IMG/VR virus record: IMGVR_UViG_3300049847_000198
Location: 1 to 64,000 of that record
Origin: a virus
Strand: one strand, 5' to 3'
DNA length: 64,000 bases
This document shows positions 1-62,759 of this stretch, piece after piece (position 1 is the stretch's first letter; every line of letters begins with the position of its first letter). The translations under genes and the position numbers were made by a program. The notes below the pieces were generated by a model. The model worked only from the letters and a program-made list of their open reading frames with translations, ran no database searches and was not told the DNA's origin.

Positions 1-93
1 CTAGGCTACGGCTACGGCTACGGCAACGGCTACGGCTACGGCTACGGCTACGGCTACGGCAACGGCTACGGCGACGGCTACGGCGACGGCTAA
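1..93 (+). CDS. Gly-Tyr-repeat protein, C-terminal end (partial)
   Basis: This is the last 30 codons of a gene cut by the window edge, read in frame 1 and ending at TAA 91-93. The visible tail is almost only Gly-Tyr dipeptides, with Asn or Asp replacing Tyr at intervals, encoded by a tandem GGCTAC hexamer (variants GGCAAC, GGCGAC). Such aromatic glycine repeats occur in surface, fibre or low-complexity proteins; no function can be given from the fragment. The near-perfect DNA repeat suggests recent expansion by slippage. Confidence 0.6.
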   Translation, partial: LGYGYGYGNGYGYGYGYGYGNGYGDGYGDG

Positions 94-52510: not shown

Positions 52511-54052
52511 CTACGCCGGAACGACTGCGACTGTCGGCGATAGGCGGGACTGCCGAAAGCAGTCAACGAGACACTGCTCAGCGAACTTTGCGTCCGACTC
52601 CGTCACCAACAGGCTATCGTGGATCGTGCCAAGAAAACGCTTCGGTCTCGCCTTGAGGAACGCGGCAGCAGCTTTGTGGATCACGTACTGGCTTTCGATG
52701 TTCTGGAGTAGCTTCGGTAAGACCGAGTGATGTGACCGCTTCAAGGTGCAGATGATCTTCCAGACGTGAGGAAATTCCCTGACAAACAAATCTCGGAACA
52801 GGCGACCCGGAACGTCTTCTTTTTCGCAGAAGATGCACTCTCTGAAGAATGTCTGTTTGAACTCATGCCGAGCCATTGATGCGTAGCTGGTGCCAGCAGG
52901 CACTAGCTTTTGGAAGTGATCGTAGAGTTGGCCTTCACAGCAGAGCGTGATGTACCGCTCGCACTCTTTCCAGTGATGCTTTACCAGCCTGATCGCCGAC
53001 AGAACATCGCTTTCGATGCTCTTGCTCAGAGGAACTGCCGAAGTCGGTTCTTGGTACAATTCCTGTGTGTTTTTGCAGTCAAAATCACCGTAAGTCGTTT
53101 CTTTAGTTGATTTTTCGTTAGATTGTTGCATCATAAGGGTGTGGGAGGGAGAGGGGCTTTCCTGCGGTTGTGTGGCGTTGTCTTGTGCGTTTGTTACATT
53201 TCGCGTCAGACGTTCAGTTGTGACTTTAGCTACACTGTAGTCGTTTTGTAATGAGTACCGTTCGATCTTGTGTATCAACTCACGTACCTTGTCAGACTCC
53301 ACGGTGTCGCTGAGGTTGAAAAGAAACATCAACAGACATCCGAAGATGAACGGCTGGCTGTTTCGGACATCGGTGTTCCAGAGTGATTCTCCGTGCCATC
53401 GCAGGTATTGCCGCAGGTCCGAGGACAGGTTCGTTAGGTTACTATGAACTCGCCCGTACTTGTCTTCCATCAAAAAGAATTGATGCGTTGAGATCATGGT
53501 GATGCTTGACTCGTCCATCCATTGAGCGAACTTCGGGTTCTTGGTTGCCGAATAGTCCTTGGCGAATCGCACATGCCGCAGAGCCGCTGGCGTGTCGATT
53601 TCCAGCCCTCTAAGCAGTTGGTACAGGGATTTGATCGTCGGACTTGAGAACCTGTCCTGCTGATCGTTTCGGAACTTGTCGATCTTGCGGTTCAAGCGGC
53701 GGTTCTTGACCGGACGGATTACTCCGTAGGCGTATCGGAATGTGCCTGTCATGCGGTAGCTCCTTGAATAAAAACCAGCCCTATAGCTCAGATCGACCTC
53801 GATGACACCATTTTCTCTAAGCCAGTCGATCCACTTCGAGAGTCTCTTCCACGAAACGACCTCCCGTAGCTTGTCGATCTTCAAGTAAACCCAATCGTCC
53901 GGGTCGTATCGCCGCGAGTCGTGCATGAATCGCCCGTAGACGCAGTGAACGATGTAGGCGGCTTCCTCCCAGTGCTTCGAGAGTTCTGGCGGCGCACGAC
54001 TGGCGATATCCAGCGTTTCAGGCAGCGTCAGATATCTCTGCGTCCAAGCCAC
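52511..54052 (-). CDS. Palm-domain polymerase-like protein, divergent
   Basis: A 513-residue protein. The N-terminal 100 residues look like a winged helix. The core has RVHSNLTNLSSDLRQYL (residues 201-217), then WNTDVRNSQPF with D228 and Q233 (equivalent to motif A, D-x4-Q), then a helix KQTFFRECIF, RSHHSVLPKLLQNIESQY and the motif C-type IHDSLLVTES (H478-D479). This is the arrangement of family A DNA polymerases or single-subunit RNA polymerases. A Thr/Gln/Ser-rich insertion (about 275-345) separates the motifs. GTG start 54052. No other replicative polymerase is seen, so this may be the phage polymerase. Confidence 0.55.
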   Translation of the reverse strand: MAWTQRYLTLPETLDIASRAPPELSKHWEEAAYIVHCVYGRFMHDSRRYDPDDWVYLKIDKLREVVSWKRLSKWIDWLRENGVIEVDLSYRAGFYSRSYRMTGTFRYAYGVIRPVKNRRLNRKIDKFRNDQQDRFSSPTIKSLYQLLRGLEIDTPAALRHVRFAKDYSATKNPKFAQWMDESSITMISTHQFFLMEDKYGRVHSNLTNLSSDLRQYLRWHGESLWNTDVRNSQPFIFGCLLMFLFNLSDTVESDKVRELIHKIERYSLQNDYSVAKVTTERLTRNVTNAQDNATQPQESPSPSHTLMMQQSNEKSTKETTYGDFDCKNTQELYQEPTSAVPLSKSIESDVLSAIRLVKHHWKECERYITLCCEGQLYDHFQKLVPAGTSYASMARHEFKQTFFRECIFCEKEDVPGRLFRDLFVREFPHVWKIICTLKRSHHSVLPKLLQNIESQYVIHKAAAAFLKARPKRFLGTIHDSLLVTESDAKFAEQCLVDCFRQSRLSPTVAVVPA

Positions 54053-54292: not shown

Positions 54293-54559
54293 TTACTGGC
54301 CAGCCGTTGAAGAAATCGCTGCACTCTGAAAGAACGGATTGTTCGGATTGGCGAACGCAGGCGGGTCGTCCATGCGCACCTTGTACCGGAACTTCATCTT
54401 TTCGGGATCGACCATGACGACTTGGTCTTTCCATTCGCCGCTGATGAAGAAGAACGGCTTCTGACCGCATTCGTCTCGCTTGAAGTTGCCGGCATTGACT
54501 GCCAAGAAATTCTTGTCGCCGTTCATGGCATAGACGGTTCGCAATCGCACTCTACTCAT
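54293..54559 (-). CDS. Hypothetical protein, 88 aa
   Basis: ATG 54559 (MSRVRL) overlaps the HU stop in the sequence ATGAGTAG; an earlier ATG at 54565 is possible. Beta-rich (FFFISGEWKDQVVMVDPEK) with an Asn/Pro tail. Same operon as HU. Unknown. Confidence 0.5.
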   Translation of the reverse strand: MSRVRLRTVYAMNGDKNFLAVNAGNFKRDECGQKPFFFISGEWKDQVVMVDPEKMKFRYKVRMDDPPAFANPNNPFFQSAAISSTAGQ

Positions 54560-54854
54560 CGGCATATTCCTTTTTTGCCAGTGCCGTGAACTTCCTCGCC
54601 AGCGTCGCTGAGGTGTTGAACTTAACGATCAGATTGTCAGGCACTTGAACGCTCTCCCCGGATCGTGGGTTCCTCGCCTTGTGTCCGGCACGCAGACGAA
54701 CCTCAAAGACTCCGAGTCCTCTGACATCCACTCGGCGTTCCTCCTCCAGAGAAGCGACGATCGCCTTGAATGTTTTCTCGACGAGTTCCCTGGTCTTCTT
54801 CTCGGTCAGACCAGTCATGTCCGAGATGGTTGCAATCAGTTTTTTGTTGAGCAA
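54552..54854 (-). CDS. HU/IHF-type DNA-bending protein
   Basis: A 100-residue histone-like protein: MLNKKLIATISDMTGLTEKK, helical dimer body, VDVRGLGVFEVRLRAGHKAR with the arm, NPRSGESVQVPDNL (Pro-containing DNA intercalation arm) and the C-terminal helix. It should bend DNA in replication, packaging or regulation. TTG start with AAGGAG at 7 bases, preceded by a 19-base repeat (54868-54886). Confidence 0.85.
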   Translation of the reverse strand: MLNKKLIATISDMTGLTEKKTRELVEKTFKAIVASLEEERRVDVRGLGVFEVRLRAGHKARNPRSGESVQVPDNLIVKFNTSATLARKFTALAKKEYADE

Positions 54855-55111: not shown

Positions 55112-55183
55112 TGCGACGTGACGGAATCGAACCGCCTTTCAGGGAGTTGAAAATCCCTTGCATGACCAATCTGCCAACGCCGC
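55112..55183 (-). tRNA. tRNA with 8-base anticodon loop (TTC/Glu or TCA)
   Basis: A complete cloverleaf on the minus strand, 72 nt: acceptor GCGGCGT/ACGTCGC (one G-U), D-arm GCAG-ATTGGTC-ATGC (one mismatch), anticodon stem AGGGA/TCCCT, variable GAAA, T-arm GGCGG-TTCGATT-CCGTC, discriminator A, no CCA encoded. The anticodon loop TTTTCAAC has 8 bases: reading TTC gives Glu (most like phage Glu loops), reading TCA gives an opal suppressor; both leave one extra base. It follows the gene at 55190 on the same strand. Confidence 0.75.
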
Positions 55184-55774: not shown

Positions 55775-56566
55775 TCAGGATTCTCCGTCAGGCTTCCATC
55801 CGTTACGGATCAAAACAGCGGCGAAGTCAGGCTTCAAATGATCTGGATGTTTTTTGAACTTGCCGTGCTCGTCAACGCTCCCGTTCTTGATCTTCAGAAG
55901 ATTGTTTTCGTCTACGACGCTCTGCGCCTCGGCGAGTGGGAATCCGTGCGCGACGGAGGTTCCGACAGCAACGACACTGATATCGGCTACTGCGTCAAGC
56001 ATTGCGACCAAATCAGGCTTCGCTGATTCCGCTAACCGCATCGCTGGATGAAAGAACAAGTCGTCGAAATCGACTCTTCCGGTATCGTGTCCAGTCGAAA
56101 TAAACACCTGAACTGCCGCCGCGTCTGCGTACTCAAGCACTTCTTCTAAAAGAAGTCGCACACGAAGCTCTCGCGTCTTGTAGTCGGAGACTGTCGGCGA
56201 CGGCGGGCATTCCTGCCCGAAGCCCTTCATCATCTGCCGCACGCGATCTTCGTGAGACGGCTTATGTGTCGGCCAGCAACCGATGAGTTTGTCTGCTGGA
56301 TACGACTGCAAAGAAAACGGTTCGCTCGGTACTCCACAAACGGGAACCAAGTTGCGTCCGGCTGACCCAGAAACTTCACGAGCAATACCCTCAAGCAAAG
56401 ACATGCGTCCTTCTCGCGTATAGGCCGTTCCGCTGGCAGACGTTTCGATGTCAAGTTGATCGCACCGCTCATGGTAACTAGCCACGTCTTCGGCGATCAG
56501 CGTTTGCAACGCAACTCCGCTTTCGATCTCTTCTTCCGTAAACGGTTCGGTTGGTTTTTCAATCAT
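55775..56566 (-). CDS. MazG-like nucleotide pyrophosphohydrolase
   Basis: A 263-residue protein whose middle shows the MazG/PRA-PH-type all-alpha fold: RELRVRLLLEEVLEYADAAA (E-x2-E type metal site), then DLVAMLDAVADISVVAVGTS and VVDENNLLKI. It should hydrolyse NTPs or (p)ppGpp-like alarmones. The N-terminal about 100 residues are not recognised. Its start overlaps the end of the sliding clamp gene, so both belong to one replication operon. Confidence 0.7.
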   Translation of the reverse strand: MIEKPTEPFTEEEIESGVALQTLIAEDVASYHERCDQLDIETSASGTAYTREGRMSLLEGIAREVSGSAGRNLVPVCGVPSEPFSLQSYPADKLIGCWPTHKPSHEDRVRQMMKGFGQECPPSPTVSDYKTRELRVRLLLEEVLEYADAAAVQVFISTGHDTGRVDFDDLFFHPAMRLAESAKPDLVAMLDAVADISVVAVGTSVAHGFPLAEAQSVVDENNLLKIKNGSVDEHGKFKKHPDHLKPDFAAVLIRNGWKPDGES

Positions 56567-57687
56567 TACCTTGCCTCAATTAGAGCCATAAGAAAGAAAA
56601 CGCTGAAGTCCGCGTTACGCATCAGGAACGCACGCGGTTCCGACTGTGGACCACCAGCACACACATGCACAACCAGCGGTTCTTTGGACGGAAAGCACTT
56701 ACTCGCCGAAGCCACGATCTCCACGTTCAAGCAAATCGTCACGTCAGGTTCGCCTTCACAACTACACGGCACCGTGGCTTCCGACTCACCATGCTGTGAC
56801 TGCATCGACAGGCTGATCGTCTCTTTTTGGATGTGGGTGTCAATCCCCACGATCTCTGGCAGCTTCACCACGGCCATCTGTTGTGCTGCCAAGAAGAAAT
56901 CACCAGCCTCTGCGATCGCCACTGGAGACGACTGCCTCAGTTTTCGATAGTTGGCCAGCGTGAATTTGCTGCCGATGTTCTGATGGCAGCCGACCTCAAC
57001 AGCCATCTCTTCGCTCTTCGACTGCAATCGGATCGTCTTGTCGCTGGCGTAAACGTCCGCCTTCGTTCCAACACAGGCGTCGGCCAGCAGAGCGAGCGAC
57101 TCGCGAGCACAGTTGATCTGCGGGAACTCTTCGCAGTCAGCGTTCAACGAGATACACACGAAGCGAGTCAGTTCGCTGCGTTCGCTCATGTCGTTACCGA
57201 AGACCATCGCCTTGCCAGCATCGCAGAATATGCCGCCTGAACCGATGCCGCCATCCCGCGTCGCTGACGACGAATACCGGAACGCGGCACGCAGAACTTC
57301 AGGATCAGTCGAGAAGACAAACTTGTCGCTGAACTCCGGCATTGAGCGATTATCTTCTTCGTGCATCGTGTTGATGGTCGTCTTGCCGCCATCGAATGCG
57401 ACGCCGATCTTCTCTTTGCCGACGCCGAGTTCTATAACTTCTCCGCGAGCACTCATTACGGCACCGAGAAGTTTTTCTGACAGAACGTAGACGCAGAACT
57501 CGTCGTCGAACTTCTCTTCAAATGAGACCTCGCAGAACGCCGCCTGTGCATTCATCGCAAACAGAGACAGGACACGGTCTTTGCACGTCAGTTTGATCGC
57601 CTGATAGCACGGGTTCGGACTGCGAACAGCCGTGAACCGCGAGACCAGAGAGACAGCTTTCTTCAATAACTCAGATTTGATTTTCAC
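56566..57687 (-). CDS. Sliding clamp (DNA polymerase III beta-like)
   Basis: A 373-residue three-domain protein. Beta-clamp features include MKIKSELLKKAVSLVSRFTA at the N-terminus, ELGVGKEKIGVAF, TINTMHEEDNRSMPEFS, and in domain 2-3 segments NCARESLALLADACVGTKA and ANYRKLRQSSPV, ending with RAFLMRNADFSVFFLMALI (hydrophobic pocket). It should encircle DNA to hold the phage polymerase. Divergent from host DnaN but collinear in length. ATG 57687. Confidence 0.8.
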   Translation of the reverse strand: MKIKSELLKKAVSLVSRFTAVRSPNPCYQAIKLTCKDRVLSLFAMNAQAAFCEVSFEEKFDDEFCVYVLSEKLLGAVMSARGEVIELGVGKEKIGVAFDGGKTTINTMHEEDNRSMPEFSDKFVFSTDPEVLRAAFRYSSSATRDGGIGSGGIFCDAGKAMVFGNDMSERSELTRFVCISLNADCEEFPQINCARESLALLADACVGTKADVYASDKTIRLQSKSEEMAVEVGCHQNIGSKFTLANYRKLRQSSPVAIAEAGDFFLAAQQMAVVKLPEIVGIDTHIQKETISLSMQSQHGESEATVPCSCEGEPDVTICLNVEIVASASKCFPSKEPLVVHVCAGGPQSEPRAFLMRNADFSVFFLMALIEAR

Positions 57688-61274: not shown

Positions 61275-62759
61275 ATGAACATTTCGCGAGAAGATTTACA
61301 AAAGCTGATTATTGTCAAGGACTCTGGATGCTGGCACTGGAACGGAACAATTCATCTTCCTCACTACTGCCATGTGATTGTCGATGGCGAGAAATGCAAC
61401 GCTCGTCGAGTGGTTAGGCAAGTTTTTGGACCACCATTCAACGAAAATCTTGCCCTGCTAAAGACCTGTAAAAACAACTACTGCGTTGCGCCTGCGCATC
61501 ACCTGACCGGCGATGAACGGTTTCTGAAAAACTACGCCGTCTCGGAAACTGGCTGCCATGAATGGAAGGGCGGGATTACGGTTAATGGATACGGAGTGAC
61601 AGGGAACGGAGGTGGTTGCAAAAGAGCGCACAGGAGAATGTGGGAATTGAAGGTTGGTCAAATCCCGCAAGGGATGGTCATCAGGCACCTATGCCATAAT
61701 CGAAAATGTGTTAATATCGACCACTTAGCAGTTGGCACACACCAAGACAATATGGACGACATGGTTAAGGCTGGCAGAGCCTGTAACGGATGGAAGAACG
61801 GCAATTACAAGAAGTCTTACCTAGATGAAAAAGACATCCTCGAAATCAGGCAACTTGCCTCCGAAGACGAGTTTACTCTATGGGAAATCGCCGAGGCTTA
61901 CGGAGCCGATGTAAGCTATATCTCAGACATCGCAAAAGGTGATTGCTGGCCACAGGTTGGCGGACCAAGAACGAAAAGAGAAGACGATCCGGTTTTCAAA
62001 TACATCACCAAGGGCAGCGAAAAGTTCAACGCCAAGATCACCGAGTCCGACGCAGTTCGTATCAGAGAACTATGCGACGAAGGAGTTCTCACACAGGGAC
62101 AGATTGGAGATCAGTTCGGCATCGACCAAACAGAAGTCTCTGACATCGCTCACGGAATCATCTGGAAACACGTTGGAGGGCCGATTGTTGAAGGCCACTA
62201 CCTGCCGACAAACCGAGAATACGACGTTGGCGAAGACCATCACGCAGCCAAGATCACTGAGATCGACGTCAAAGAGATTCGCAGGCTGTATGCCACAAAA
62301 GAAATGAATCAACAGCAGCTTGCCGAGCGATACGGACTAAAGCAGTGCCATGTATCCGACATCGTACTGAGTGTCTCGTGGAGTCACGTTCCGGCAGAGC
62401 ATGAGATCAAAAAGAAAACCACTGGCGTAAACTCGCAAGGCAAAGCCTGCAAACTGACAGAAAATGATGTTATTCAAATGCGAGACTGCTACCGCAACGG
62501 AGCATCGTTCTCTGAAATTGCCAAAATGTTCAAAATCTCTCCAGATGCCGCCAGAAGCACGATCATTGGACTACGATGGAGTCATGTTCCCGGAGCGATT
62601 CCCGACGCCGGAAGAAACATCACAGAGAAGGATGCGATCAAGATAAAGGCGATGCTACGAGATGGAGAGAAGCCTAGATCAATCGCAAAAGAACTAGGAG
62701 TCAAGCCGGGCGTTGTCTACAAAATATCAAGCGGTCAGTCATGGTCTCATGTGTCTTAG
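61275..62759 (+). CDS. Modular HNH homing endonuclease with five HTH units
   Basis: A 494-residue protein. Residues about 18-78 form a first HNH_3-type domain with a lost catalytic His, residues 93-152 a second, intact one (CHEWKGG; IRHLCHNRKCVNIDHL). Five tandem HTH units follow (about 181-230, 252-302, 325-373, 391-439, 448-494), each ending with Trp-x-(H/Q)-Val. It resembles phage homing endonucleases in which the HTH units read the DNA site, but with an unusually long array. It has its own promoter and GGAG. Confidence 0.75.
   Translation: MNISREDLQKLIIVKDSGCWHWNGTIHLPHYCHVIVDGEKCNARRVVRQVFGPPFNENLALLKTCKNNYCVAPAHHLTGDERFLKNYAVSETGCHEWKGGITVNGYGVTGNGGGCKRAHRRMWELKVGQIPQGMVIRHLCHNRKCVNIDHLAVGTHQDNMDDMVKAGRACNGWKNGNYKKSYLDEKDILEIRQLASEDEFTLWEIAEAYGADVSYISDIAKGDCWPQVGGPRTKREDDPVFKYITKGSEKFNAKITESDAVRIRELCDEGVLTQGQIGDQFGIDQTEVSDIAHGIIWKHVGGPIVEGHYLPTNREYDVGEDHHAAKITEIDVKEIRRLYATKEMNQQQLAERYGLKQCHVSDIVLSVSWSHVPAEHEIKKKTTGVNSQGKACKLTENDVIQMRDCYRNGASFSEIAKMFKISPDAARSTIIGLRWSHVPGAIPDAGRNITEKDAIKIKAMLRDGEKPRSIAKELGVKPGVVYKISSGQSWSHVS

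What the first reader, a model, noticed from the sequence alone, without database searches (positions are those of the whole stretch)
52511..54052. Divergent palm-domain polymerase beside a sliding clamp
Motif A-type D-x4-Q and motif C-type HDSL in the right order, with an N-terminal winged helix. No standard DNA polymerase is found in the window. It may be the replicative polymerase or a single-subunit RNA polymerase.
Basis: inference. Interest (0 to 1): 0.6.

Follow-up and report, generated by a model that had tools for sequence, protein, structure and literature searches.

The report
Divergent phage DNA polymerase I relative
A large phage carries two related genes for a stripped-down, DNA-binding relative of DNA polymerase I, part of an unnamed family found in many large phages that is predicted to make DNA but is probably a helper or primer-making enzyme in most of them, not the main replicase.

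Summary
The gene is real: window 52511-54052, minus strand, 513 aa. The motif pair alone is weak evidence (3.7% of shuffles of the protein have it). Homology settles it. In 56 aligned phage relatives, G200-R201, D228, Q233, Y377, K399, E453 and H478-D479 are invariant and R395 is R or K: the family A layout of hairpin Arg, motif A, RxxxK and motif C. AlphaFold models are good (pLDDT 82 for this protein, 91 for the compact relative L012). Foldseek of L012 against the PDB returns only family A DNA polymerases in its top 50 (best E 1.6e-6). So it is a minimal, exonuclease-free Pol I-type enzyme with an N-terminal winged-helix-like domain, close to the published TV-Pol and divPolA2 groups, with a partly disordered ~90-aa insert. 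The 112-kb phage record holds a second copy (40% identity, outside the window) and no detectable A, B or C family replicase, DnaB or DnaG. In 16 of 20 relatives' records a regular replicase coexists, so 'replicative polymerase' is unproven; 'RNA polymerase' is unlikely. Best reading: an accessory or priming DNA polymerase. New variant of a known kind.

The parts
52511..54052 (-). 513-aa divergent family A palm polymerase (TV-Pol/divPolA2-like)
53732..53995 (-). N-terminal winged-helix-like domain, residues ~20-107
   Evidence: AlphaFold topology H25-48, E55-58, H59-63, H68-80, E84-87, E96-101; no sequence-family hit
53411..53464 (-). beta-hairpin 'DKYGRVHSNLTNLSSDLR' (residues 197-214) with invariant G200-R201, equivalent to the template-facing Arg of family A
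   Evidence: 56/56 conserved; the same motif aligned weakly to phage G20c Pol I
53339..53383 (-). Motif A (residues 224-238, D228-x4-Q233): first catalytic Asp, and Gln at the position of E. coli Pol I E710
   Evidence: 56/56 D and Q
53018..53293 (-). Insert between motif A helix and fingers (residues 254-345): helix then disorder, absent from typical 390-aa relatives
   Evidence: motif A-to-C spacing 250 aa here versus ~132 in most relatives; pLDDT<50 at 270-287 and 293-340
52826..52870 (-). Motif B / fingers R395-x3-K399 ... F408 (residues 395-409)
   Evidence: K 56/56, R or K 56/56, F/Y408 56/56
52691..52705 (-). Q450-x2-E453-S454 helix motif
   Evidence: E 56/56, Q 53/56
52607..52633 (-). 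Motif C T-I-H478-D479-S480: second catalytic Asp (residues 474-482)
   Evidence: H and D 56/56
56566..57687 (-). Sliding-clamp-like gene (context)
   Evidence: PHROG_947 E 5.5e-13
55775..56566 (-). MazG-like nucleotide pyrophosphohydrolase (context)
   Evidence: PHROG_671 E 3.8e-16
54552..54854 (-). HU/IHF-like DNA-binding protein (context)
   Evidence: PHROG_379 E 1.6e-18

Best explanation
This is a minimal, exonuclease-free nucleic-acid polymerase of the Pol I (family A) superfamily: an N-terminal winged-helix-like domain, a helical linker or thumb-like segment, and a palm with inserted fingers. It belongs with the TV-Pol/divPolA2 group of phage and mobile-element polymerases. Mechanism: two-metal phosphoryl transfer with D228 and D479; R201 contacts the template; R395 and K399 contact the incoming triphosphate or growing strand; Q233 and the aromatics F403 and F408 sit where family A enzymes select deoxy- over ribonucleotides. 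The winged helix probably holds it on DNA. It most likely does short DNA-templated DNA synthesis (priming or gap filling) during phage replication and recombination. Shown here by homology and structure prediction: fold, catalytic residues, no exonuclease domain, a paralog in the same genome. Inferred: activity (~0.9), dNTP rather than NTP use (~0.75), accessory or priming role rather than sole replicase (~0.7).
For: In 56 relatives G200 R201 D228 Q233 Y377 K399 P428 E453 H478 D479 are invariant. Model of this protein: pLDDT 82, pTM 0.79; Foldseek PDB top hits are Pol I structures, probability up to 1.0. Model of the compact relative L012: pLDDT 91; all 50 listed PDB hits are family A DNA polymerases, best E 1.6e-6, 71 hits at E<=0.001. 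BFVD hits include 'Putative DNA polymerase I' (E 2.5e-14) and Barba31A 'DNA polymerase' (E 2e-5). PHROG_4756, which contains the divPolA2 reference AUR84708 (E 1.8e-91), matches 6 of the 56 relatives, best E 2e-6. A regular replicase coexists in 16 of 20 relatives' records. In one clade the gene is followed directly by a PF00476 polymerase gene.
Against: No significant sequence match to any solved polymerase: best polymerase match for the profile is E 0.8, none for the single protein. Foldseek E-values for the window protein itself are only 5e-3, probably because its insert breaks the alignment. Global TM-scores are low (0.25-0.40), so only the core is shared. In this phage no other replicase was found, so here it could be the main polymerase. 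I found no biochemistry for any member of this family.
Confidence: 0.83

Rival explanations
1. Primase-polymerase: it starts DNA strands de novo, as proposed for TV-Pols and shown for CcPol-MP of SCCmec.
For: CcPol-MP, a TV-Pol relative, makes primers without a primer (PMC7581432, PMC10061031). Of 14 relatives' records with a DnaB-type helicase above cut-off, only 4 have a Toprim_2 match above cut-off, and only one record has a DNAG_N match. The phage here has neither DnaG nor DnaB.
Against: Four records (G002, G009, G020, W01) carry both a DnaG-like Toprim protein and this family. No OB-fold SSB partner was recognised beside it. Archaeo-eukaryotic primases and strongly diverged primases were not searched.
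Confidence: 0.35
2. Replicative DNA polymerase of this phage, perhaps shared between the two paralogs and tethered by the neighbouring clamp.
For: No A, B or C family replicase in the 112-kb record. Clamp, HU and MazG genes lie just upstream in the same orientation. A separate 5'-3' exonuclease gene, the other half of Pol I, is in the genome.
Against: 16 of 20 relatives' records have a regular replicase. No proofreading domain. The record is linear and may be incomplete, and the phage may use host Pol III.
Confidence: 0.18
3. Single-subunit RNA polymerase of the T7 type, with the winged helix as promoter-binding domain.
For: Motif C is HDS as in T7 RNA polymerase (general knowledge). Mitochondrial RNA polymerase appears from rank 20 in the Foldseek list of the window protein. 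The same possibility was raised for divPolA2 (PMC11348598).
Against: Only DNA polymerases in the top 50 for the clean model. Invariant Gln, not Gly, at the steric-gate position. No promoter-like motif set in intergenic DNA.
Confidence: 0.07
4. Palm-like pseudo-enzyme or DNA-binding regulator without catalysis.
For: Winged helix; variable neighbourhoods among relatives.
Against: All catalytic residues are invariant in 56 diverged relatives and retained in the paralog.
Confidence: 0.04

Closest known systems
TV-Pol family (Iyer, Abhiman, Aravind 2008, PMC2579912)
   Same: Minimal exonuclease-free family A core; hairpin Arg, two palm Asp and fingers RxxxK; found in phages and mobile elements, including planctomycete ones
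   Different: No D5 helicase found in this genome; the TV-Pol fingers Asp is not evident (invariant Tyr377 instead); the Ma-LMM01 protein I take to be its TV-Pol (L092:22746-24266) was not found by the family profile; N-terminal winged helix and insert
divPolA2 of barbaviruses and other phages (PMC11348598; PHROG_4756)
   Same: Active palm, no exonuclease, separate N-terminal domain, variable gene neighbourhood, paralogs in one genome, coexisting regular replicase; some relatives match PHROG_4756 (best E 2e-6)
   Different: divPolA2 reference has D-x4-E and a C motif FDE; this family has D-x4-Q (mostly DxxNSQ) and HDS; AUR84708 aligns only weakly (hhalign probability 1.3%, motifs in register)
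CcPol / PolA-SSB primases (PMC7581432, PMC10061031)
   Same: Truncated family A polymerase of a mobile element
   Different: CcPol keeps Pol I Glu710 (its E174), here Gln; no SSB partner identified here
Bacterial DNA polymerase I (Klenow/Taq)
   Same: Palm/fingers fold and motif order
   Different: No exonuclease domains, much smaller, winged-helix N-terminus

Membership tests
Family A (Pol I) palm superfamily | Palm/fingers fold matching solved family A enzymes | tested here: met
   Foldseek PDB best E 1.6e-6 for the relative L012, 5e-3 for the window protein
Family A (Pol I) palm superfamily | Motif A Asp and motif C His-Asp | tested here: met
   D228 and H478-D479 invariant in 56
TV-Pol | Beta-hairpin with absolutely conserved Arg | tested here: met
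   R201 56/56, strands E194-196 and E202-204
TV-Pol | Fingers RxxxK | tested here: met
   R395-x3-K399; K 56/56, R 43 and K 13
TV-Pol | Conserved Asp in the fingers | tested here: inconclusive
   No invariant Asp between motif A and RxxxK; the paper's alignment figure could not be read
TV-Pol | Thumb of two antiparallel coiled-coil helices before the hairpin | tested here: inconclusive
TV-Pol | Linkage to a D5-like helicase or to integrase/transposase genes | tested here: not met
   No D5 helicase among the ORFs scanned; an IS605 OrfB/TnpB gene exists in the phage but was not placed next to it
divPolA2 (PHROG_4756) | Match to the PHROG_4756 profile | tested here: not met
   Window protein: no match to this family listed at E<=10; paralog E 0.0044; 6 of 56 relatives match, best E 2e-6
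T7-type RNA polymerase | Gly at the steric-gate position of motif A | tested here: not met
   Q233 invariant
T7-type RNA polymerase | Cognate promoter set in the genome | tested here: not met
   No widely repeated intergenic motif of 10 nt or more by exact k-mer counts
PolA-SSB primase | Partner OB-fold SSB gene and de novo priming | not testable with these tools
   The 90-aa upstream ORF (54293-54565) was not modelled; activity needs the bench

The most novel reading that the evidence does not exclude
A distinct, unnamed family of winged-helix-tethered Pol I-type primase-polymerases is widespread in large and huge phages, and this phage, having duplicated the gene, copies its whole genome with the pair and no conventional replicase.
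Probability: 0.1. Interest if true: 0.75.

Novelty: new variant of a known kind. Interest (0 to 1): 0.42.

Why it matters
At least 144 viral contig stretches encode this family. It has no Pfam model, and neither this protein nor most relatives match any PHROG. It joins TV-Pol and divPolA2 as evidence that large phages keep a stripped-down Pol I-type enzyme beside their replicase. If it primes, it would add phage examples to the very few primases that are neither DnaG nor archaeo-eukaryotic type, and the question can be tested directly with one purified protein.

Tried and rejected
Single-sequence searches of Pfam, PHROGs and the PDB gave nothing. The first single-protein scan of viral contigs found nothing; the seven-sequence alignment worked. 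Searches for close relatives in bacterial genomes found none, so no host or prophage link. hhalign against a single divPolA2 protein has a low probability (1.3%) although its motifs align. The family profile's best non-family hit among 1603 ORFs is the neighbouring PF00476 polymerase of L012 (E 0.0035), aligned at motif B, which is suggestive only. A promoter set that would support an RNA polymerase was sought and not found. A repeated palindrome first looked specific to the two polymerase genes, but nine copies are spread over the genome, so it was dropped as a part of the finding.

Full report
Observation. The ORF is at the stated coordinates but on the minus strand, 513 aa with a GTG start. 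It contains D228-VRNS-Q233 and H478-D479-S480-L481. As bare motifs these mean little: the pair occurs in 3.7% of residue shuffles of the protein, and D-x4-Q followed by HDS is found in 3 of 81 ORFs of the genome, two of which are this gene and its paralog. The gene is followed on the minus strand by a 1641-aa ORF that has no Pfam or PHROG assignment. It is preceded by a small ORF, an HU-like gene, a tRNA-like gene, a 188-aa ORF, a MazG-like gene and a clamp-like gene.

The genome. The window is part of G000, a 112,081-base linear virus record. A second copy lies outside the window at 105470-107245 on the plus strand, 40% identical, with all catalytic residues kept. The two are sisters on a long stem with full support, so they come from an old duplication within this lineage. 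The genome also encodes capsid, portal and large terminase genes, a DEAD-box helicase, a ParB-like protein, an Erf-type annealing protein, a stand-alone Pol I-type 5'-3' exonuclease, a RecA-like and an RNase H-like protein. It has no detectable DNA polymerase of family A, B or C, no DnaB and no DnaG/Toprim_2 primase. The record may be incomplete.

Relatives. Single-sequence searches of Pfam, PHROGs and the PDB found nothing. tblastn against phage genomes found relatives in metagenomic huge phages (595-735 kb records). An alignment of these seven proteins pulled 144 stretches of viral contigs, 80 kept. Most relatives are about 390 aa, with D-x2-NSQP and T-[IV]-HDS about 132 residues apart. The window protein has about 120 more residues there; most of them are predicted as a helix followed by disorder.

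Catalytic layout. In the 56-sequence alignment A3 the invariant residues are G200, R201, D228, Q233, Y377, K399, P428, E453, H478 and D479. R395 is Arg or Lys, F408 is Phe or Tyr, Q450 is 53/56. This is the order of family A: hairpin Arg, motif A, RxxxK with an aromatic, a Gln helix, motif C. By position (inference from established Pol I numbering), D228 = D705, Q233 = E710, R395 = R754, K399 = K758, D479 = D882. In typical relatives the aromatics fall at the Pol I F762 and Y766 positions; the window protein has one extra residue before F408.

Structure. AlphaFold of the window protein: pLDDT 82.2, pTM 0.79. Foldseek against the PDB ranks Pol I structures first, probability up to 1.0 but E only 5e-3. 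The compact relative L012 gives pLDDT 90.8; all 50 listed PDB hits are family A DNA polymerases, best E 1.6e-6, 71 at E<=0.001. Global TM-scores are low (0.25-0.40), as expected when only palm and fingers are shared. Viral models hit include 'Putative DNA polymerase I' of an uncultured marine phage (E 2.5e-14) and the Barba31A 'DNA polymerase' (E 2e-5). The N-terminal part has winged-helix topology.

Relation to published families. Iyer et al. 2008 (PMC2579912) defined TV-Pols by a hairpin Arg, two palm Asp, RxxxK plus an Asp in the fingers, and a two-helix thumb. The hairpin Arg, the palm Asp pair and RxxxK are met here; the fingers Asp and the thumb could not be settled; the usual D5-helicase linkage is not met. 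The 2024 survey of phage polymerases (PMC11348598) described divPolA2: active palm, unknown N-terminal domain, paralogs, variable neighbourhoods, coexisting replicase. PHROG_4756 contains its reference protein (E 1.8e-91) and matches 6 of the 56 relatives (best E 2e-6), but not the window protein. So the family is a relative of both groups, not a certified member of either.

Role. In 20 relatives' records, 12 have PolB (some with modest scores) and 4 others have Pol III alpha, so 16 have a regular replicase. In one clade the gene is followed directly by a PF00476 polymerase gene. DnaB is above cut-off in 14, while a Toprim_2 primase is above cut-off in only 4. This points to an accessory or priming role, with priming favoured by the CcPol-MP precedent (PMC7581432 and PMC10061031) but weakened by the four records that have both. 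An RNA polymerase is unlikely: DNA polymerase neighbours only in the clean fold search, Gln at the steric gate, and no promoter set.

Shown: real gene, catalytic layout, family A fold by prediction, paralog, lack of a detectable replicase in this record. Inferred: catalysis, sugar preference, role.

Noticed in passing
window 55112-55183 (-): tRNA gene (Rfam 48 bits, E 1e-7) whose anticodon stem closes an 8-nt loop UUUUCAAC; ARAGORN reads a four-base anticodon UUCA, which would pair with UGAA, as in a frameshift or UGA suppressor.
   Followed up: partly
window 30365, 52482, 58209; G000 68892, 87647, 105429, 107448, 108006, 108059: Nine copies of a palindrome TCGAGTGCC-N4-GGCACTCGA, many intergenic. 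Copies with a GCGC core occur only beside the two polymerase genes. Often T-run before and A-run after the stem, so not a typical terminator; perhaps an operator or partition-like site.
   Followed up: partly
L006:5992-8438 and same place in L012, L015, L016, L028, L037: In this clade the family gene is followed directly by a short Pol I-type polymerase gene (PF00476 where tested) and then by a ~190-aa ORF that looks sigma-factor-like by eye (not tested); four of its records also encode Pol III alpha.
   Followed up: partly
window 61275-62759 (+): HNH endonuclease followed by several repeated helix-turn-helix units.
   Followed up: no
L003:12-2966 (-) (G000 64012-66966): 984-aa DEAD-box helicase with a weak LAGLIDADG match (E 0.02) in the middle, possibly an intein.
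   Followed up: no
window 4-93: Short tandem GGCTAC-type repeat at the very start of the record, reading as Gly-Tyr repeats in one frame.
   Followed up: no
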